From the NCBI GenBank assembly GCA_017398805.1, contig JAFQEZ010000047.1, positions 1 to 35,091 on the forward strand: a DNA stretch of 35,091 nucleotides. Reading direction: 5' to 3'. Under the pieces are notes generated by a model, which did not search any database, was not told the DNA's origin, and worked only from the letters and a program-made list of their open reading frames with translations. Source of the DNA: Bacteroidaceae bacterium. GTDB lineage: Bacteria > Bacteroidota > Bacteroidia > Bacteroidales > Bacteroidaceae. Each line of letters begins with the position of its first letter. The first letter of the stretch is position 1. Below are positions 5,144 to 35,091 of the stretch, piece after piece. The translations under genes and the position numbers were made by a program.

Positions 5144-7606
5144 TTAAAATAATCCCCAGATTGTGTATACTGCAAATCCTGCAATCCATGCTACTGCCGT
5201 GTTGTAGGCAATGGAGAATAGTGCCCAACGTTTGCTGCCGGTCTCATCGGCTATCGCCGAGATTGTTGCAATACATGGGAAGAACAGCAGTATGAAGACA
5301 AGGAATGCTGCTGCCGAGCGTGGGGTAAAGTCGCCCGAATGTTGCAAATCCTGTTGTATGCTTTCATCTGAATCGCTGCTGTAGAGGACTCCAAGCGTAC
5401 TCACTACAAGCTCCTTTGCCGGTATACTTGTTATGAGCGCAATGCTTGAACGCCAGTTCTGACCCAACGGTTCAAGTACCGGCTCAACCGCGTGTCCTAT
5501 CATTGCAATGAAAGAGCTCTCGTTGATACCATCACTCTGTTCTCTGTTCTCTGTTCTCTGTACTCTGTACTCTGTACTCTGTTCTCTGTTCTCTGTTCTC
5601 TGTACTCTGTTCTCTGTACTCTGTACTCTGTTCTCCGTTCTCTCCTCCGGTCTTGGATAGTAACTAAGGAACCAGATGACAACAGTAGATAACAGTATGA
5701 CCGTACCTATCTTCTTTACGTACTGTGCACACTTGTCCCACATGTGGCGTAGTGTTGCGCTGAGTGTAGGCAGACGGTAGGGCGGCAGTTCCATAACAAA
5801 AGGCGTCTCATCCTTAGGGAACTTTGTAAGTCTTAGCAAGCGTGCTGTAATAATTGCGACAGCAATGCCGAGCAGATATAACCCTACAAGAACTATTGCT
5901 GCGTGGTCGGGGAAGAATGCTCCTGCAAAAAGTACCATCACCGGCAAGCGTGCACTGCACGACATGAACGGTGTCACAAGAATCGTTATCAGTCGGCTGC
6001 TGTGACTTTCGATTGTACGGGTTGCCATGATTGCCGGCACATTGCAACCGAATCCCATAAGCATCGGGATGAACGATTTGCCGTGCAGGCCCATTTTGTG
6101 CATCAAACGGTCCATGATGAACGCGGCACGCGCCATGTAGCCCGAATCCTCCATCAACGATATGAAGAGGTACAATATGAGTATCTGTGGAATGAATACG
6201 GCGACACTGCCGACGCCGCTTATTATTCCGTTGACAATAAGGTCCTGCATAGCACCGGCAGGAATCGCTGCTGCAGCCTCTTCTCCTATCCATCCGAATA
6301 GCATCTCTATCCACTCCTGTGGATATGCTCCAAGCATGAACACCGAACTGAACATCACCCACATGACAAGTATGAAAAGCGGAAAACCGAGCCAACGGTT
6401 TGCCACAAGCCTGTCAATGCGGCGTGTCTTCTTCTGGGTATCCTTGTTGCCGGGCTTGTATGTCTCCTGTAGCGCACCGTTTATAAATCCGTACTTTGCG
6501 CCGCTTATGGCTGTCTCGACGTCGACACCTATCTGTGACTGCACTTTTTTGGAGTTGTTATGTGCGATATGTTGCCAACGTGGCAACTCCATGCATCTGT
6601 TTAGCTGGTTGACAACCTCCTTGTCGCCTTCGAGCAGCTTCAATGCCCAATAGCGTACGGGGAACTGTTGCGGAAGGTCATCGGCCTTGTGCAGTTCTGC
6701 CGACAATGGTGCCAACTGCTCCTCGATGATATTTCCGTAGTTGATGTGGATGTGTCTTATTGTCTTGTTGTTCCCCTCGAAAAGGTCGATGATAGTATCA
6801 AGCAACTTGTCGAGTCCTTTGCTGTTCTTTGCCACTGTGGGAATCATCGGGATACCCATCATCGCTCCCAAATGCTCATAGTCTATCTCTGCACCGCTGG
6901 CAAGCAACTCGTCGTACATGTTGAGCGCAACGACTGTGCGCAGGTTCATGTCGATAAGCTCTGTGGTGAGGTATAAGTTGCGTTCAAGGTTCGATGCCAC
7001 AACTGAATTTATTATAATGTCGGGCATCTGCTCAAAAAGATGACGGCGCACATAAATCTCCTCGGGAGAGTATGCGGCAATGGAGTATGTGCCTGGGAGG
7101 TCGGTCAGGTTTATACGGTATCCTTTGTAGTTGAAACTGCCGACTTTTGCATCTACGGTCACACCGCTGTAGTTGCCCACATGCTCGTTCTGGTTAGCAA
7201 GGGCATTGAAAATTGATGTCTTTCCGCTGTTGGGGTTGCCAACCAATGCCACATTTATGACATTGTTTCTGCGTGTCGAAATCTTTTTCAAAGTACAGCT
7301 TGCACAACTGTTGCCGCTGCATGTCTCGCATATCGACATGCTTGTGAATGTAGGAGCCGGTGTAAGCTCTTTCTTTGCCTCCTCTTCGGGCAGAACCTCA
7401 ATCATGGCAGCCTCACTGCGACGTAACAGCACGTCATATCCCATGACATGGTATTTCACAGGGTCATGCATTGGAGAGTCAAGCACCGACTTGACCTTCT
7501 CGCCACGTATGAACCCCATCTCCATTATTCGCTTGCGGAATCCTCCGTGTCCCGAAAGGCGCACAATGACAGCGGTCTCTCCATTTCTCAGTTCCGACAG
7601 TTTCAT
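5144..7606 (-). CDS. feoB: FeoA-FeoB fusion, ferrous iron transporter, with heptapeptide insert
   Basis: An 820-residue fusion imports Fe(II) across the inner membrane. Residues 1-75 are a FeoA (SH3-like) domain. A linker at about 93-104 holds four cysteines (CETCSGNSCASC). The G domain has G1 GNPNSGKT at 123-130, G3 DLPGT at 169-173 and G4 NMYD at 229-232. The permease has Gate-type motifs around GFGCNVPAIMATRT and FFPCIATISAI. Between two membrane segments, about residues 656-691 are a low-complexity run of five heptapeptides (TENREQS type) encoded by 15 heptanucleotide repeats. This run is not part of the FeoB fold as I know it. The start at 7606 fits the FeoA domain and lies just downstream of a consensus promoter. 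The longer frame to 7735 would extend past that promoter. Confidence 0.95.
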   Translation of the reverse strand: MKLSELRNGETAVIVRLSGHGGFRKRIMEMGFIRGEKVKSVLDSPMHDPVKYHVMGYDVLLRRSEAAMIEVLPEEEAKKELTPAPTFTSMSICETCSGNSCASCTLKKISTRRNNVINVALVGNPNSGKTSIFNALANQNEHVGNYSGVTVDAKVGSFNYKGYRINLTDLPGTYSIAAYSPEEIYVRRHLFEQMPDIIINSVVASNLERNLYLTTELIDMNLRTVVALNMYDELLASGAEIDYEHLGAMMGIPMIPTVAKNSKGLDKLLDTIIDLFEGNNKTIRHIHINYGNIIEEQLAPLSAELHKADDLPQQFPVRYWALKLLEGDKEVVNQLNRCMELPRWQHIAHNNSKKVQSQIGVDVETAISGAKYGFINGALQETYKPGNKDTQKKTRRIDRLVANRWLGFPLFILVMWVMFSSVFMLGAYPQEWIEMLFGWIGEEAAAAIPAGAMQDLIVNGIISGVGSVAVFIPQILILYLFISLMEDSGYMARAAFIMDRLMHKMGLHGKSFIPMLMGFGCNVPAIMATRTIESHSSRLITILVTPFMSCSARLPVMVLFAGAFFPDHAAIVLVGLYLLGIAVAIITARLLRLTKFPKDETPFVMELPPYRLPTLSATLRHMWDKCAQYVKKIGTVILLSTVVIWFLSYYPRPEERTENRVQSTENRVQRTENREQSTEYRVQRTENREQSDGINESSFIAMIGHAVEPVLEPLGQNWRSSIALITSIPAKELVVSTLGVLYSSDSDESIQQDLQHSGDFTPRSAAAFLVFILLFFPCIATISAIADETGSKRWALFSIAYNTAVAWIAGFAVYTIWGLF
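5535..5639. repeat. Heptanucleotide tandem array (family A), 15 units inside feoB
   Basis: Fourteen exact CTCTGTT or CTCTGTA units plus one CTCCGTT unit make 105 bp, which is 35 codons. On the coding strand the repeat contains no stop in any frame. Just beyond it the two alternative frames stop at once: TGA at 5534-5532 in one and TGA at 5502-5500 in the other. A gain or loss of one or two units would therefore end FeoB shortly after residue 690. Shorter versions of the same unit lie at 12899-12915 and 29214-29250. Confidence 0.95.
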
Positions 7607-7679: not shown

Positions 7680-7786
7680 TAGTTGTTTTTTTTAAAATGA
7701 TGCTTCTTGTAGTCATTTGTGGTGATTGTTTTCAAAATTCCTCACATCTTGCTATGCAGTAGTATCTATTTCATAACATTTTATGA

Positions 7787-8064: not shown

Positions 8065-8433
8065 TTAGTCTGCTATGAGTGATATCAATGCCGCAATGCC
8101 GAGTACAGTTACCGCTGCGTCAGCTGCAGGATTGTCATAATAATCTCTGCGTACCGGTGGAGGTGGAGGTGGTGGAGGGCATGGACGCGGTGCAGGACGG
8201 TTCACAACCACAACAGGGCGGTTTGGCCTGTAATCCGGTCTGTCTGGTTTGCCTGGCTTGCCCGGTCTGTAATCCGGCTTCCTGTTATCCTTCTTTCCTA
8301 TCTTATAACCTCTCTTCTCCTTACCTCTGTTTTCCACTTTAGGCTTGGCATTGCCCTTATCATTGTTTGCCATACTCTGTGCAGGTATAAGCATTCCGCC
8401 TATCAACGCTGCAATAATCATCATCTTCTTCAT
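8065..8433 (-). CDS. Small secreted proline/arginine-rich protein, unknown function
   Basis: The 122-residue product has a clear signal peptide (lysines, then a hydrophobic run ending near SMANND). It continues as a basic region with repeated KPDYRPGKP / RPDYRPNRP-like units, a run of eight prolines and a short hydrophobic C-terminus (AVTVLGIAALISLIA) that could be a membrane anchor. I recognise no family. The basic, proline-rich middle is expected to be unstructured in the periplasm and could bind peptidoglycan or polyanions, but this is a guess. It has its own consensus promoter and terminator, which supports it being a real gene. The downstream leader-side sequence contains a large inverted repeat. 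Confidence 0.75.
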   Translation of the reverse strand: MKKMMIIAALIGGMLIPAQSMANNDKGNAKPKVENRGKEKRGYKIGKKDNRKPDYRPGKPGKPDRPDYRPNRPVVVVNRPAPRPCPPPPPPPPVRRDYYDNPAADAAVTVLGIAALISLIAD

Positions 8434-8587: not shown

Positions 8588-9107
8588 GTGATGTCTGCGT
8601 TATGCGTCAAGTCGTAAATCCTCATTTACTCATAGTAAACTCCGGTTTACGCCTTTGTCGCAAGCCTTGCCCTCCCACTTTTTATTTAACCAACACCAAA
8701 GTGATGTCTGCGTTACGCGACAAGTCGTAAATCCTCATTTACTTATAGTAAACTCCGGTTTACGCCTTTGTCGCAAGCCTTGCCCTCCCACTTTTTATTT
8801 AACCAACACCAAAGTGATGTCTGCGTTATGCGTCAAGTCGTAAATCCTCATTTACGTTTAGTAAACTCCGGTTTACGCCTTTGTCGCAAGCCTTGCCCTC
8901 CCTCTTTTTATTTAACCAACACCAATGTGATGTCTGCGTTATGCGTCAAGTCGTAAATCCTCATTTACTTATAGTAAACTCCGGTTTACGCCTCTGTCGC
9001 AAGCCTTGCCCTCCCACTTTTTATTTAACCAACACCAAAGTGATGTCTGCGTTACGCGTCAAGTCGTAAATCCTCATTTACTCATAGTAAACTCCGGTTT
9101 ACGCCTC
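8588..9107. repeat. 113-bp tandem repeat array, four full copies plus one partial
   Basis: The sequence GTGATGTCTGCG starts at 8588, 8701, 8814, 8927 and 9040, exactly 113 bp apart, and the last copy stops after about 68 bp at the end of the nan operon. Each unit contains two adjacent hairpins, GTAAATCCTCATTTAC and GTAAACTCCGGTTTAC, joined by a variable ACTCATA-like linker, then CGCAAGCCTTGCCC and a TTAACCAAC tail. GTTGGTTAA just left of the array (8570-8578) is the inverse of that tail. Units differ by a few substitutions only. Small in-frame openings in each unit are a by-product of the repetition. No separate gene is seen in the 8434-9112 gap. Confidence 0.95.
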
Positions 9108-9112
9108 TGCTG

Positions 9113-11629
9113 TTACTTGCACTCCTTTGGGCTTGAGACAAGTGAGAAGAGCCATGCGGTAATTATACTCACTACCATGCCGATAGCTCCGTAAAGGAGG
9201 AAATTGGCATCGGTGTATGCACTCAACAGGAATACAGCGACCTCTCCGGCAATGAAACCTACAAGTGCTGCATATCCCCTGACACGCTTCATGAATACGG
9301 CAATGAAGAACAGGCCTCCCAAACCACTGGTAAGCAGTCCCAGTATCTCGTTGAAGAAATCAAGGAACGACTGTATATCCCATGTGGCCATGAACAGGGC
9401 AAGCAACAGACCGATCATACCGCTGACCACAGATGCCCAACGGGCTACCGAAACCAACTGCGAATCTGTTGTGGATCTGCGGAAACGCTTCCAGAAGTCA
9501 ATGGAAAAGGCTGTCGCCACACTGTTGATATTGCTCGAAATGGTACTCATGGTTGCTGCAAAGATAGCCGCAATGAGAGCGCCTGCTACACCTGCCGGCA
9601 TCTGGCTCATCATGAAGAACGGAAAAATGGCATCAGATTGTCCCATTGTCACGTCAAGTTCTGTCGGGTGGGTCTTGTAGAAGGTGTAAAGGCCTGTACC
9701 TATCATATAGAAGGCAACAGATACGAATACACTCATAAGTCCGTTGACAAGAATTCCACGGCCGGCAGATTTCTCGTCGGCTGTAGTGAGGTAGCGTTGG
9801 ATGACTGTCTGGTCCGAGGTATATGAAATAAGGTTGTTGGCCAAGCCGCCGAGTATGATTACCCACCACGTGGCCTGCGACCAGGTACTGCTCAGGTCGA
9901 ACAGCCGCAGCTTGTCGTTTTCCAATGCGATGTCAATGCATCCGCTTATTCCACCTTCAGTACCGACAGCAAGGTATACAACAGCAAATATCGCTCCAAA
10001 AACAAGTATCAAGCCTTGTACAACGTCGCCCCATATAACGGCTTCCACGCCGCCCATGGTACAATAGATGATTGTGACCAGTCCCATAAGGACTATACAC
10101 ATATAGATATCGATACCGGTTACGGCTGTAAGCGCCAATGATGGCAGATAGAGCACGATGGCCATGCGTACTATCATGAATATACAGAAGAACGTTGAAG
10201 CCAACATACGGGTGAAGAGGTTGAAACGTACCTCAAGAACTTCGTATGCGCTGGTGACGTTGAGTTTGCGGAAGTAGGGGAGATAGTATTTGATGACTGG
10301 GAAACTTACTAAGAGTATCATCCACAGCATCGGGTAGTATGTCCAGTCGGTTGAGTAGGCTTTGGCAGGAATGGTCATGTAGGTGATGGCAGAGAGCATT
10401 GTGGCATATATGCTGATACCGGCAGCCCACCATGGGATGCGTCCACCGCCTTTGAAAAAGTCTTCACTGCCGTTCTCTTTGCGCATGAAGTAGAAACCCA
10501 TGCCCAACATTGCAATAAGGTAGAGTACGAGGATTGTCCAGTTGAGCCATCCGAAGTTCTTGTCGTTGCTCACTTCAATGTGTGTCACGTCGGCACTGCG
10601 CACACCGGGCATAAGTTCGCCTCCGCTGTATATCCATCCCTTACCGTCCTCTGTAGGGGTAAGACAAGCTCCGGCACGGGCCAGTTTGCTGTCACCGGGG
10701 ATCAGCCCCCATGAATCGGTGATTGTATGGTAGGTGAGTACTTCCTTGCGGAAACGGTACCATTCCGGGTCGTGACGCAGGTACATGCTGTCCTTTTTTC
10801 CCTCTATTGCATTCAGGAAGATATCATGGTCGACACCACCGAAGAATGCTACATGGCTGTAACCTACAGGAGTGCATGTACTGCCCACAATGGCCTGTAT
10901 CTTCTGCTCCTGTTTGCCGTCGACACTCTTGCCTGTTCTTGCCAAAGTCGGTGATGTGCGTTTCCATTGCTTGGATGTCACGTCACCTTTTTTAAGTTCT
11001 GCAATGGGGATGAACACGCCATCGGTATGTACCATCGGGCTCATTCCTTCGTCCTTGGATTGGTATCCGCCAAATATAAATAGGTTGTAGCCTGTGGCGG
11101 TGTTCTGCACCGCCATGCATGGCTGTATGCGGCAATCATCGGGTATCGTGCCTACTTTGTCCCATGCTTTGCCATTGCTGGGGATCGGTATTGCGTATAC
11201 GTCCTTGTTGGGGATGCTGTTGCTTTTTCCTCCGGCAATCCAGAGCATGCCGTCATGGTAGGTTGCTGCAAAGTTGTCCAATGCTTTGGGTAAGGATGGG
11301 AATGGGGTGGATGTACCATCTGTGACATTGATGAGAGTACACTCGCTTAGTGAACCGGTTTCGTCCATTCCGCCCAGATAAACGTAGCCATCGGGAACTT
11401 GTACGCTTGCTCCGTAGGCACGAGGGTAGTATACTTTCTTCCCGCCGTCGGCGCATGGGACGTCAGGAAAGTCGCATCCTCCGTAGGTGGTCAGTTCGCC
11501 ATTGACCAGGCCTGCATAATGACCCGAAACGGCTCTCTTAATGGGTTTGGCGGATGATACGGTAATCCTGTTCTGCGCCATGCAAATCATTGAGCATAAC
11601 AAGAGTGACAGTATGAGATGTTTTTTCAT
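9113..11629 (-). CDS. NanM-like sialic acid mutarotase fused to sodium/solute symporter
   Basis: The 838-residue protein starts with a signal peptide (to about residue 18, CMAQ). A Kelch-type beta-propeller of the cyclically permuted mutarotase family fills about 20-350 and contains repeated GG-containing blades (TYGGCDFPD, YLGGMDE, WIAGGKS, FGGYQS, FFGGVDHD). From about residue 360 a sodium:solute symporter (SSS) domain follows with about 13 membrane segments, including GGRIPWWAAGISIYATMLSAITY. The propeller would sit in the periplasm and interconvert sialic acid anomers before uptake. This domain pairing is known in Bacteroidetes. It begins 10 bases after nanE, so it is the third gene of the nan operon. 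The substrate is inferred from the neighbours and the NanM homology. Confidence 0.9.
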   Translation of the reverse strand: MKKHLILSLLLCSMICMAQNRITVSSAKPIKRAVSGHYAGLVNGELTTYGGCDFPDVPCADGGKKVYYPRAYGASVQVPDGYVYLGGMDETGSLSECTLINVTDGTSTPFPSLPKALDNFAATYHDGMLWIAGGKSNSIPNKDVYAIPIPSNGKAWDKVGTIPDDCRIQPCMAVQNTATGYNLFIFGGYQSKDEGMSPMVHTDGVFIPIAELKKGDVTSKQWKRTSPTLARTGKSVDGKQEQKIQAIVGSTCTPVGYSHVAFFGGVDHDIFLNAIEGKKDSMYLRHDPEWYRFRKEVLTYHTITDSWGLIPGDSKLARAGACLTPTEDGKGWIYSGGELMPGVRSADVTHIEVSNDKNFGWLNWTILVLYLIAMLGMGFYFMRKENGSEDFFKGGGRIPWWAAGISIYATMLSAITYMTIPAKAYSTDWTYYPMLWMILLVSFPVIKYYLPYFRKLNVTSAYEVLEVRFNLFTRMLASTFFCIFMIVRMAIVLYLPSLALTAVTGIDIYMCIVLMGLVTIIYCTMGGVEAVIWGDVVQGLILVFGAIFAVVYLAVGTEGGISGCIDIALENDKLRLFDLSSTWSQATWWVIILGGLANNLISYTSDQTVIQRYLTTADEKSAGRGILVNGLMSVFVSVAFYMIGTGLYTFYKTHPTELDVTMGQSDAIFPFFMMSQMPAGVAGALIAAIFAATMSTISSNINSVATAFSIDFWKRFRRSTTDSQLVSVARWASVVSGMIGLLLALFMATWDIQSFLDFFNEILGLLTSGLGGLFFIAVFMKRVRGYAALVGFIAGEVAVFLLSAYTDANFLLYGAIGMVVSIITAWLFSLVSSPKECK

Positions 11630-12815: not shown

Positions 12816-12866
12816 AGTGTCTTGTCTTTATTGTAATTCCAATTAAAAGTTCCCTCTCCTTGGGAG

Positions 12867-12915
12867 GGGGCGGACACGCCGGTACCGCCCCTACGGTGTC
12901 TGTACTCTGTACTCT
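12867..12915. repeat. GC-rich inverted repeat and short heptad run between nanL and nanE
   Basis: GGGGCGG (12867-12873) pairs with CCGCCCC (12885-12891) and resembles GC-rich dispersed intergenic elements of Bacteroidales. About 2.4 units of the CTCTGTA heptad follow at 12899-12915, the same unit as in feoB. The stem lies inside the operon and could act as a processing or stability element. Confidence 0.6.
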
Positions 12916-26822: not shown

Positions 26823-28811
26823 ATGCATTTACCGGTTGGGACACTTCTGAAGAATGGAGATTATAGAATAGAAAAGGTACTCGGTCAGGGCGGCTTCGGT
26901 ATAACCTACCTTGCCGAACAGACAGGTCTCGGCCGCAAGGTCGCCCTCAAGGAGTTCTTCATGCAGGAACACTGTAACCGCGATGCGGACACCGCTCAAG
27001 TTTCCGTCCCCTCTGACGGCAGCAGAAAACTCGTCGAGCGCTTCCGTCAGAAGTTCCTCAAAGAAGCAAGGCTCATAGCCTCCTTCGACAACGGCAACAT
27101 CATAAAGATTTTCGATGTCTTTGAAGAGAACGGCACCGCCTACTATGTAATGGAATACCTCGAAGGCAAGAGCCTCAAGGCAATGGTAGAAGAGGGCGGA
27201 GCATTGGCAGAATCCACAGCGCTGAAGTACATCCGTCAGGTAGCCGACGCCCTTCGCGAAATCCACTCCCACAACCTTCTTCACCTCGACGTCAAGCCCG
27301 CCAACATAATGCTCAACCGCAAGGGCCAGGCCGTACTCATCGACTTCGGCATCTCCAAGCATTATGACGAAGGCGGTCATCAGACCAGCAGCGCCCTTAT
27401 AGGCACCAGCGAAGGCTACGCCCCCTTGGAACAGTACGAAGCCGGCGCCCTCGATAGCTTCACCCCTGCCACCGATATATACGCCCTCGGCGCCACACTA
27501 TTCTTCCTGCTTACCGGCATCCGCCCGCCCAAGGCAGGTGATGTCATGAATGACGGCTTGCCCGTGTTGCCACAGGAAATATCACCGGCAGTACGTAATG
27601 CGATAGATGTTGCCATGCAACCACGCAGGAAAGACCGCCCCCAAAGCATTGCCGATTTCTTGGCTCTGCTCGGTGGCGTGGCACCACGCACCGGCGGGGC
27701 AGCAGTTCCCGGCATGGCAGCTGAACCTATGGCTTTTGCCAATGACGCGGCTACGGAAATATCACCCGTACATGATGTTCTCCCTGCACCTTCAAGACAG
27801 ACACCGCCTCCCGCCGTAGAGGCCCCACGCAGGGATGCACCCGCTCCGGAAAGAAAATCCAGTGACAACAGGAGTGGAACCCCAAAGAAAAGCAAAGCAC
27901 CGCTTATCCTGCTTTTGTTGTTATTTGTTGCCGTCATAGCCGGTGGGGCATGGTACATTACCAATGTCAGCGGTGGTAATGACAATGGTGCTAATGGCGG
28001 AAATGCAATGAAAGAGACCGCTGTTGATGATGTGGTTTTGGAGCGAGATAGAGATGGTAATGACAATGGTGCTAATGGCGGAACTGCAATGAAAGATACC
28101 GTTGTTGATGATGTGGTTTTGGAGCGATATAGCGGTAGGAACGGCAAATATGGCTTCATAGACAAGAGCGGCAATGTGGTCGTTCCGTGCAAGTATGGTA
28201 ATGCATGGAGCTTTTCCGAAGGCCTGGTTGCTGTTGAACTTGACGGCAAATGGGGCTTCATAGACCAGAGCGGCAATGAGGTTATTCCGTGCAAGTATGG
28301 TAATGCATGGAGCTTTTCCGAAGGCCTGGCTGCTGTTGAACTTGACGGCAAATGGGGCTTCATAGACAAGAGCGGCAATGTGGTCGTTCCGTGCAAGTAT
28401 CATGCTGCACGCAGTTTCTCCGAAGGTTTGGCTGCAGTGCGTATTGGAGGTTGGGAAACTGGCAAATGGGGCTTCATAGACAAGAGCGGCAATGAGGTTA
28501 TTCCGTGCAAGTATGATGGTGCAGGCAGTTTCTCCGAAGGCCTGGCTGTTGTTGAACTTGACTACTATTGGGGCTCCATAGACAAGAGCGGCAATGTGGT
28601 TATTCCGTGCAAGTATGATAATGAATACAGATTCTCCGAAGGTCTGGCTGTTGTTAAATTTGACGGCAAATATGGCTTCATAGACAAGAGCGGCAATCTG
28701 GTTATTCCGTTTAAGTATGATTATGCAAACGATTTCTCTGAAGGCCTGGCGCATGTTGGACTTGACGGCAGATATTTTTATATTGACAAGAGCGGAAACG
28801 AAACAAAGTAG
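26823..28811 (+). CDS. Membrane Ser/Thr protein kinase with seven WG repeats
   Basis: The 662-residue protein opens with a Hanks-type kinase domain (about 14-285). It has the glycine loop GQGGFG at 21-26, K43 in VALKEF, the catalytic loop HLDVKPAN (D156, K158, N161; the usual HRD Arg is Leu) and IDFG with D174. A Pro/Ala-rich linker, a membrane segment at about 361-379 and an extracytoplasmic part follow. That part begins with a 27-residue tandem duplication (NDNGANGG...) and ends in seven WG repeats (441-662: KWGFIDKSGNEVIPCKY...). The design suggests that the WG region senses a ligand and signals inward. Codons in the kinase part are strongly C-ending, unlike the WG part, which hints at a mosaic origin. 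It has its own promoter and terminator. Confidence 0.92.
   Translation: MHLPVGTLLKNGDYRIEKVLGQGGFGITYLAEQTGLGRKVALKEFFMQEHCNRDADTAQVSVPSDGSRKLVERFRQKFLKEARLIASFDNGNIIKIFDVFEENGTAYYVMEYLEGKSLKAMVEEGGALAESTALKYIRQVADALREIHSHNLLHLDVKPANIMLNRKGQAVLIDFGISKHYDEGGHQTSSALIGTSEGYAPLEQYEAGALDSFTPATDIYALGATLFFLLTGIRPPKAGDVMNDGLPVLPQEISPAVRNAIDVAMQPRRKDRPQSIADFLALLGGVAPRTGGAAVPGMAAEPMAFANDAATEISPVHDVLPAPSRQTPPPAVEAPRRDAPAPERKSSDNRSGTPKKSKAPLILLLLLFVAVIAGGAWYITNVSGGNDNGANGGNAMKETAVDDVVLERDRDGNDNGANGGTAMKDTVVDDVVLERYSGRNGKYGFIDKSGNVVVPCKYGNAWSFSEGLVAVELDGKWGFIDQSGNEVIPCKYGNAWSFSEGLAAVELDGKWGFIDKSGNVVVPCKYHAARSFSEGLAAVRIGGWETGKWGFIDKSGNEVIPCKYDGAGSFSEGLAVVELDYYWGSIDKSGNVVIPCKYDNEYRFSEGLAVVKFDGKYGFIDKSGNLVIPFKYDYANDFSEGLAHVGLDGRYFYIDKSGNETK
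27975..28136. repeat. 81-bp tandem duplication inside the kinase gene
   Basis: GGTAATGACAATGGTGC starts at 27975 and again at 28056, and the two 81-bp copies differ at only a few bases. The duplication is in frame and doubles a 27-residue extracytoplasmic linker just outside the membrane. Confidence 0.9.
28143..28808 (+). repeat. WG-repeat coding array, seven units of about 30-37 codons
   Basis: Seven copies each encode a GFIDKSGN..IPCKY...FSEGLA pattern. The first two are nearly the same at the DNA level, which suggests recent expansion by unequal recombination. One unit carries a five-residue insert (GGWET). Confidence 0.9.
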
Positions 28812-29206: not shown

Positions 29207-29213
29207 CATAAAA

Positions 29214-29250
29214 GAGTACAGAGAACAGAGTGCAGAGTACGGAGTACAGA
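29214..29250. repeat. Heptanucleotide run (family A), five units
   Basis: GAGTACA, GAGAACA, GAGTGCA, GAGTACG and GAGTACA follow each other. This is the same unit family, on the opposite strand, as the 15-unit array in feoB. Confidence 0.85.
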
Positions 29251-29398
29251 TTAAGATATCTTGTAACGGTTGTTGCATCCCACCGGCAGAAATAATCTCT
29301 AAACTTATCGGCACCGATAAAATCACAACGTAAATCCCTGCTGTTTGTCGGCCGTGGAATCAAACGAGATTCCTCGTCGCTTCGCTCTGTAGACAGCA

Positions 29399-35056: not shown

Positions 35057-35091
35057 GTGAAAACTGAAAAGTGAAAACTGAAAACTGAAAA
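35057..35091. repeat. Heptanucleotide array (family B), five units, cut by window end
   Basis: GTGAAAA, CTGAAAA, GTGAAAA, CTGAAAA and CTGAAAA run to the last base, so the array probably continues. It is the reverse complement of the unit family at 1818-1880. Confidence 0.9.

What the first reader, a model, noticed from the sequence alone, without database searches (positions are those of the whole stretch)
5535..5639. Possible phase-variable FeoB through a 15-unit heptanucleotide array
The array is 105 bp, so it happens to be in frame. Its 7-bp unit is not a multiple of three, and it is open in all three frames. The two alternative frames downstream stop at 5534-5532 and 5502-5500. Any gain or loss of one or two units would remove about the last 130 residues, including the second Gate region. 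Slipped-strand repeats of this kind control phase-variable genes in other bacteria. A phase-variable iron permease, with hemerythrin, regulator and msrC downstream in the same operon, would be unusual.
Basis: partly seen in the sequence, partly recalled or inferred. Interest (0 to 1): 0.78.

Follow-up and report, generated by a model that had tools for sequence, protein, structure and literature searches.

The report
Heptamer repeat array inside FeoB loop
A 15-copy, 7-base repeat sits in frame inside the ferrous-iron importer gene of an uncultured gut bacterium; it belongs to a repeat family scattered through related bacteria and lengthens a tolerant loop of the protein, and no switched-off copy was found, so a true on/off switch is possible but not supported.

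Summary
Window 5535-5643 holds a period-7 array (unit ACAGAGA/T on the gene strand, 15.6 copies) inside an intact FeoA-FeoB fusion gene. Gain or loss of one or two units stops translation at 5534-5532 or 5502-5500. The phase-variation reading is weakly supported. The array is one of at least 34 clusters of this heptamer in the genome, two of them inside conserved coding sequence. The family occurs in 16 of 44 genomes of the genus (uncultured Bacteroidaceae, largely from ruminant gut) and 1 of 57 others searched. In FeoB it fills a loop that is hypervariable in length. Of 44 genus genomes, 38 have a readable loop: eight carry ACAGAG-type arrays (about 8-20 units), two a GGTGAAA-type heptamer, one a remnant, and all 38 are in frame. 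In neuO, a proven heptamer switch, 42 of 64 genomes are OFF. The array is also impure and late in the only FeoB found. Best reading: a slippage-grown, dispersed repeat, tolerated and frame-filtered in a flexible, probably periplasmic loop; FeoB is its recurrent coding site. A mostly-ON switch is not excluded (OFF share up to about 30%), because no within-species data were available.

The parts
5144..7606 (-). feoAB fusion gene (ferrous iron permease with N-terminal FeoA domain), intact; the open frame extends upstream to a TTG at 7735
   Evidence: translation; Pfam FeoA 44-114, FeoB_N 161-315, FeoB_Cyto 333-427, Gate (2 stretches, best 513-607), FeoB_C 616-668; only strong FeoB_N match in the assembly (194.5 bits, next 64.9)
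5535..5643 (-). heptanucleotide array, unit ACAGAGA/ACAGAGT (gene strand), 15.6 copies, translated as RTENRVQSTENRVQRTENREQSTEYRVQRTENREQ
   Evidence: (TRF)
5516..5653 (-). whole variable loop (residues 695-740 of the 863-codon frame) between the helix ending WFLSYYP and the conserved SFIAMIG block; inferred periplasmic
5532..5534 (-). TGA met after loss of two units or gain of one unit
5500..5502 (-). TGA met after loss of one unit or gain of two units
29211..29251 (+). second, short ACAGAG-type array in the window; overlaps only short unverified ORFs (90 and 109 aa)
12899..12915 (-). minimal TCTGTAC copies (2.4; ACAGAG on the minus strand) beside a G+C-rich stretch that recurs between arrays on contig C21
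1815..1883 (-). GGTGAAA/ACTGAAA-type heptamer array between the ORFs 826-1779 and 1889-2527 (cytidylyltransferase)

Best explanation
The array is a local copy of a dispersed heptanucleotide repeat family of one genus of uncultured gut Bacteroidaceae. Shown: the family is scattered over the genome, mostly outside conserved coding sequence; it recurs in the same FeoB loop in several species with different unit numbers; every readable loop is in frame. Inferred: units are gained and lost by replication slippage or unequal recombination; in the FeoB loop, a length-tolerant and probably periplasmic segment, only states that keep the downstream helices in frame persist, so unit changes are balanced by threes or by indels in the flanks. 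The translated product is a hydrophilic, probably disordered TENRVQ/KEQRAK heptad that lengthens the loop. The array is thus mainly a tolerated, frame-filtered passenger; any OFF cells would be a by-product of slippage rather than an evolved switch.
For: 140 matches (48 forward, 92 reverse; up to 3 mismatches) to four tandem units in the own genome against 0 for the reversed control. In the 24 stretches read around the listed places (the list of places was capped) these form 34 clusters; feoB and one linker (C64:35793) lie inside conserved coding sequence. The degenerate four-unit pattern occurs in 16 of 44 genus genomes and 1 of 57 others; in G004 and in the one outside genome (G100) it is not above the reversed control, and five of the 16, the own genome among them, have some control hits. 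A second heptamer, GGTGAAA, occurs in 18 of 44 genus genomes and 2 of 57 others (own genome 52 hits against 20 control hits, G020 1 against 1), and in the same FeoB loop of two species. Loops in frame in 38 of 38, 15-62 aa long, period-7 signal clearly above 300 shuffles in 10 of 38 and barely in an eleventh. Of 64 parsed loops outside the genus 49 are 11-16 aa, the longest 67; the two there with repeats have periods 9 and 15. In-frame heptamer arrays also in a kinase linker and an MnmA-like enzyme. mutS1 is present in the own genome, so loss of MutS is not the cause.
Against: The feoB array recurs in 7 of 9 compared relatives (8 with a remnant), while six other, extragenic arrays of this genome are seen beside the best homologue in only 3 of 51 cases. 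That persistence could mean selection for the array rather than tolerance, though 7 of the 9 relatives were known to carry the feoB array when chosen. In the window's array no stop occurs in any frame, while 26 of 36 other array segments of the genome contain one; about 3 would be expected, so this is weak. G039 shows its strongest internal periodicity at 5 units (35 bp), so frame-changing steps probably did occur.
Confidence: 0.7

Rival explanations
1. Phase-variable FeoB: slipped-strand changes in unit number switch the importer ON and OFF reversibly, as in neuO, and OFF cells gain under iron or oxidative stress.
For: Unit length not divisible by three, early stops in both other frames, large differences in unit number between species, recurrence of the array in the same loop, a likely 5-unit step in G039. 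Precedent: neuO, heptanucleotide in the coding region, ON when the number is divisible by 3 (PMC13001214, passages seen).
Against: 0 OFF of 38 readable loops (0 of 8 with ACAGAG-type arrays of about 8-20 units); with the neuO ON share of 22 of 64 the chance of 8 of 8 ON is about 2e-4 if species were independent, which they are not fully. Array impure, late in the gene, in the only strong FeoB found in an 87% complete assembly. Same family in intergenic DNA and in a kinase linker.
Confidence: 0.15
2. The encoded charged heptad loop is selected for its own sake (for example to tune iron access or trimer contacts at the periplasmic face), and slippage adjusts loop length in steps of seven residues.
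For: Persistence in feoB compared with other sites; hydrophilic loops rich in Glu, Arg, Lys and Gln in the array species, also where the units differ (ACAGAG, AAAGAG, GGTGAAA). The neuO paper cites earlier work that repeat length raises activity (PMC13001214, passages seen).
Against: Species of the same clade do without it (7 of 18: G040, G023, G005, G019, G026, G024, G022); loop length is otherwise loosely constrained (11-67 aa outside the genus).
Confidence: 0.12
3. Assembly artefact: a metagenome assembly misjoined intergenic heptamer arrays into feoB or miscounted units.
For: The genomes are drafts of many contigs; the named ones are metagenome assemblies; the contig of G012 ends at the loop.
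Against: Eight species carry the array at the same place and in frame, with flanks intact; three of these contigs are seen with record titles in another collection (L082, L083, L084), by length the same assemblies as G030, G037 and G042. Exact unit numbers remain uncertain.
Confidence: 0.03

Closest known systems
neuO of E. coli K1 (heptanucleotide AAGACTC in the coding region; PMC13001214, passages seen)
   Same: Seven-base unit inside a reading frame; full-length product depends on unit number modulo 3; wide range of unit numbers (3 to 53 there, about 8 to 20 here).
   Different: neuO repeats lie in the 5' region, vary within a strain (21 repeats in 93% of cells), and 42 of 64 complete genomes are out of frame; here the array is late in the gene, impure, one of dozens in the genome, and 0 of 38 loops are out of frame.
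Dispersed heptanucleotide repeats: TAACTGA of Beggiatoaceae, Cyanobacteria and five Bacteroidetes (PMC4679880, passages seen); GGGAATC of Xanthomonas and GGGGA(C/T)T of Nostoc (PMC4692102, passages seen)
   Same: Seven-base period, many sites per genome, over-represented outside coding DNA, patchy distribution.
   Different: Different units; here one site lies in frame inside a conserved transporter and recurs there across species.
Haemophilus influenzae heptanucleotide SSRs, including AACAACC tracts at a TonB-dependent iron receptor gene (PMC2651432, passages seen)
   Same: Heptamer tracts near or in iron-uptake genes, with strain differences in unit number.
   Different: Outer-membrane receptors and adhesins (hmw), not FeoB; a frame shift at an internal heptamer tract was reported for hmw1a of one strain.
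Bacteroides fragilis FeoAB fusion (PMC8980893, search listing and start of abstract seen)
   Same: FeoA and FeoB fused.
   Different: Its loop was not examined here.

Membership tests
Slipped-strand phase-variable (contingency) locus | Tandem repeat in the reading frame whose unit is not a multiple of three, with early stops in the other frames | tested here: met
Slipped-strand phase-variable (contingency) locus | OFF (out-of-frame) alleles exist | tested here: not met
   0 of 38 readable loops among 44 genus genomes; 6 unreadable: G004, G018 and G028 without a FeoB match, G008, G012 and G027 cut by contig ends. One genome per species only.
Slipped-strand phase-variable (contingency) locus | Unit number varies within one species or culture | not testable with these tools
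Slipped-strand phase-variable (contingency) locus | Pure, uninterrupted tract (usual) | tested here: not met
   A or T at the seventh base; at most 3 identical units in a row
Slipped-strand phase-variable (contingency) locus | Tract near the 5' end or promoter (usual, not strict) | tested here: not met
   Array at residues about 697-733 of 863
Dispersed heptanucleotide simple-sequence repeat family | Same seven-base unit at many places in the genome, above chance | tested here: met
   140 matches against 0 control; at least 34 clusters
Dispersed heptanucleotide simple-sequence repeat family | Mostly outside conserved coding sequence | tested here: met
   Of 34 clusters read, feoB and C64 lie inside conserved coding sequence; C53 and C22 lie near an end of ORFs of 187 and 184 aa; C88 lies in an upstream extension of an MFS frame; the others overlap no ORF of 180 aa or more by more than about 25 bp. 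ORFs, not called genes; Pfam on ten of them
Dispersed heptanucleotide simple-sequence repeat family | Lineage-restricted | tested here: met
   16 of 44 genus genomes, 1 of 57 other family or order genomes; but the same unit also occurs in 9 IMG/VR contigs of varied G+C content, so not exclusive
FeoAB ferrous iron permease | FeoA domain, FeoB G domain, Gate and FeoB_C domains in one frame | tested here: met

The most novel reading that the evidence does not exclude
A clade of gut Bacteroidaceae uses a stop-free heptanucleotide repeat as a spreading length-and-frame module: it repeatedly seeds the FeoB loop, where slippage both tunes loop length in seven-residue steps and throws off a minority of iron-import OFF cells, which would be a slipped-strand switch of a housekeeping metal importer.
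Probability: 0.14. Interest if true: 0.8.

Novelty: new variant of a known kind. Interest (0 to 1): 0.45.

Why it matters
It shows how a period-7 repeat, mostly kept out of coding DNA here, can settle in a conserved membrane transporter when it meets a length-tolerant loop, and that this is seen in eight species. It gives a natural test of whether frame-changing repeats in a housekeeping gene are filtered passengers or a bet-hedging switch, and it warns against calling phase variation from a single genome.

Tried and rejected
Loss of mismatch repair as the cause of repeat spread: rejected for MutS, since mutS1 is over the cut-off in the own genome and in 40 of 44 genus genomes; mutL was not looked at. 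Array confined to feoB: rejected. Array unique to this genome: rejected. Growth only in steps of three units: not supported; the strongest internal periodicity is 6 units in G037 and G000 but 5 in G039 (which mends a misregistered row for G039). Mobility on viruses: arrays of the same unit occur in 9 IMG/VR contigs of G+C content 0.33-0.65; nothing seen links them to the bacterial arrays. FeoB in viral contigs: no pattern match. Papers holding the array letters: 7, all for one 12-base string, none for the other three strings; titles are on unrelated subjects (listing only). FeoB with phase variation: 35 papers hold both terms, 20 listed; no title shown joins them (listing and abstract starts only). 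Searches for heptanucleotide repeats; passages also seen in PMC4235727 and PMC11868660, where nothing shown concerned FeoB or heptamers in Bacteroides. Fold of the loop: not obtained.

Full report
What is there. The gene on the minus strand from 7606 (first conserved Met; the open frame starts at a TTG, 7735) to 5144 encodes a FeoA-FeoB fusion with the expected Pfam domains. It is the only strong FeoB_N match in the 2.71 Mb, 87% complete assembly. At 5535-5643 a period-7 array of 15.6 copies lies in it, with unit ACAGAGA or ACAGAGT on the gene strand. The segment is far beyond chance: period-7 score 73 against at most 11 in 100 Markov windows. Changing the unit number by one or two stops translation at 5534-5532 or 5502-5500 with proteins of 729-749 aa.

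Where it lies in the protein. The array fills residues about 697-733, in the loop between the helix that ends WFLSYYP and the conserved block SFIAMIG. Hydropathy places that helix directly after a 41-residue loop, net positive, that contains ETPFVMELPPYR. If that loop and both protein ends are cytoplasmic, as predicted for the ends of Pseudomonas FeoB (PMC4847171, passages seen), the array loop should face the periplasm.

Relatives. The genus has 44 genomes here, the window's included. In 38 the FeoB loop is readable; three have no FeoB match (G004, G018, G028) and three are cut by contig ends (G008, G012, G027). Loops run from 15 to 62 residues. Ten of 38 have a period-7 signal clearly above 300 shuffles and one (G020) barely: eight ACAGAG-type arrays (G000, G031, G030, G042, G037, G033, G039, G003; about 8 to 20 units), two GGTGAAA-type (G011, G034), and the G020 remnant. 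All 38 loops are in frame. My parser asked for an open frame across the loop, but one search supports this independently: in 30 genomes both halves of FeoB were matched as separate pieces and report the same open frame, and in 8 one piece spans the loop. On the FeoB tree the arrays fall in a clade of 18 species, 7 of which have none; ACAGAG and GGTGAAA types sit in one small group (G034, G003, G011, with arrayless G023), so arrays were gained, lost or replaced more than once. Outside the genus 49 of 64 parsed loops are 11-16 residues, the longest 67 (10 of the 80 loci were not parsed); the two coding repeats found there have periods of 9 and 15 bases, as expected when only in-frame units are allowed. 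Eight loci match genus contigs by length; seven of these are titled Bacteroidaceae from water buffalo, sheep, yak, cattle or roe deer gut, one Bacteroidales without a stated source.

The repeat family. Four tandem units with up to 3 mismatches occur 48 times forward and 92 reverse in the own genome, with 0 for the reversed control. The listing of places was capped, so the 34 clusters read in 24 stretches are a lower bound. feoB holds one of the two longest uninterrupted segments (111 bp, no stop in any frame); the other, on C63, is 125 bp with five stop triplets. Apart from feoB, one cluster lies in frame in a linker of a 537-residue open frame (C64:35793-35826), and one lies before an MFS gene within an upstream extension of its frame (C88); C53 and C22 lie near an end of ORFs of 184-187 aa. 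The degenerate four-unit pattern occurs in 16 of 44 genus genomes and 1 of 57 others, with control hits in G000 (3 against 44), G004 (3 against 2), G031 (4 against 73), G032 (1 against 3), G042 (1 against 27) and the outside genome G100 (2 against 2); so G004 and G100 do not count for much. The second heptamer, GGTGAAA, occurs in 18 of 44 and 2 of 57; its control is less clean (G000 20 against 52, G031 4 against 10, G040 1 against 12, G020 1 against 1, and one or two hits in five genomes without matches). In one place (C26) units of the two types grade into each other, which suggests that period seven is kept while the unit drifts.

Is it a switch? For: the geometry, the large unit differences between species, recurrence at one place, and a 5-unit periodicity in G039. 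Against: no OFF allele in 38 loops. In neuO, a well documented coding heptamer switch, 42 of 64 genomes are OFF (PMC13001214, passages seen); with that rate 8 of 8 ON has probability about 2e-4 if the species were independent, which they are not fully. Eight of eight ON still allows an OFF share up to about 31%. The array is impure and late in the gene, and heptamer arrays sit in frame in a kinase linker of G042 and, of a GAGAGTT type, in an MnmA-like tRNA enzyme of G019. Within-species counts, the decisive test, were out of reach.

Is it selected? In nine relatives the feoB array is present in 7 (8 with a remnant), while six other, extragenic arrays of this genome are present beside the best homologue in 3 of 51 (all three before the MFS gene); the C64 linker array was looked for and found in one relative, G020. 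The nine were chosen among near relatives, 7 of them known to have the feoB array, so the contrast is inflated; the windows were only 260-501 bp, and orthology was judged by the best protein match alone (65-91% identity), for C53 in a different neighbourhood. Slower decay in coding DNA (only in-frame deletions survive) explains it as well as positive selection does. The window's array lacks stops in all frames whereas 26 of 36 other array segments in the genome have one; about 3 expected, so only suggestive, and the loops of G037, G039 and G003 do hold off-frame stops in or at the edge of their arrays.

Verdict. A real and unusual feature: a frame-changing heptamer repeat living in a conserved iron importer in several species. 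The best reading is a tolerated, frame-filtered member of a dispersed repeat family; a phase switch is possible at low probability.

Noticed in passing
L254:10565-10619 (-), L256:365-391 (+), L257:9167-9193 (-): Three IMG/VR contigs carry (ACAGAGA)n arrays within open frames of C5-cytosine DNA methyltransferases (PF00145), in L254 and L257 near residue 252. SSRs in methyltransferases are typical of phase-variable systems (recalled), so these look like better switch candidates than FeoB.
   Followed up: partly
window 8588-9106: A 113-bp unit repeated 4.6 times at 96% matches between the 122-aa ORF 8065-8433 and the sodium:solute symporter gene 9113-11629.
   Followed up: no
window 35058-35091: The contig ends inside a TGAAAAC heptamer array (4.9 copies), so heptamer arrays may be breaking this assembly.
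   Followed up: no
L250 (G019:C55:16899-17048): MnmA-like enzyme (tRNA_Me_trans) with a GAGAGTT-type heptamer array, partly with a 21-bp super-unit, in frame from about residue 127 of the open frame.
   Followed up: partly
L249 (G042:C80:14364-14513): Ser/Thr protein kinase with an in-frame ACAGAG/ACAGAT heptamer array in the linker after the kinase domain.
   Followed up: partly
L193 (G000:C88:26936-27025), L197, L198, L203: Heptamer array upstream of an MFS transporter gene, found at the same place in three of nine relatives, in the same orientation relative to the gene.
   Followed up: partly
L187 (G000:C21:63-330); window 12860-12915: Short heptamer arrays sit beside a recurring G+C-rich stretch (CCGTAGGGGC...), possibly one composite extragenic element.
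   Followed up: no
window 26823-28811: Protein kinase followed by WG beta repeats with an 81-bp and a 102-bp coding tandem repeat.
   Followed up: no
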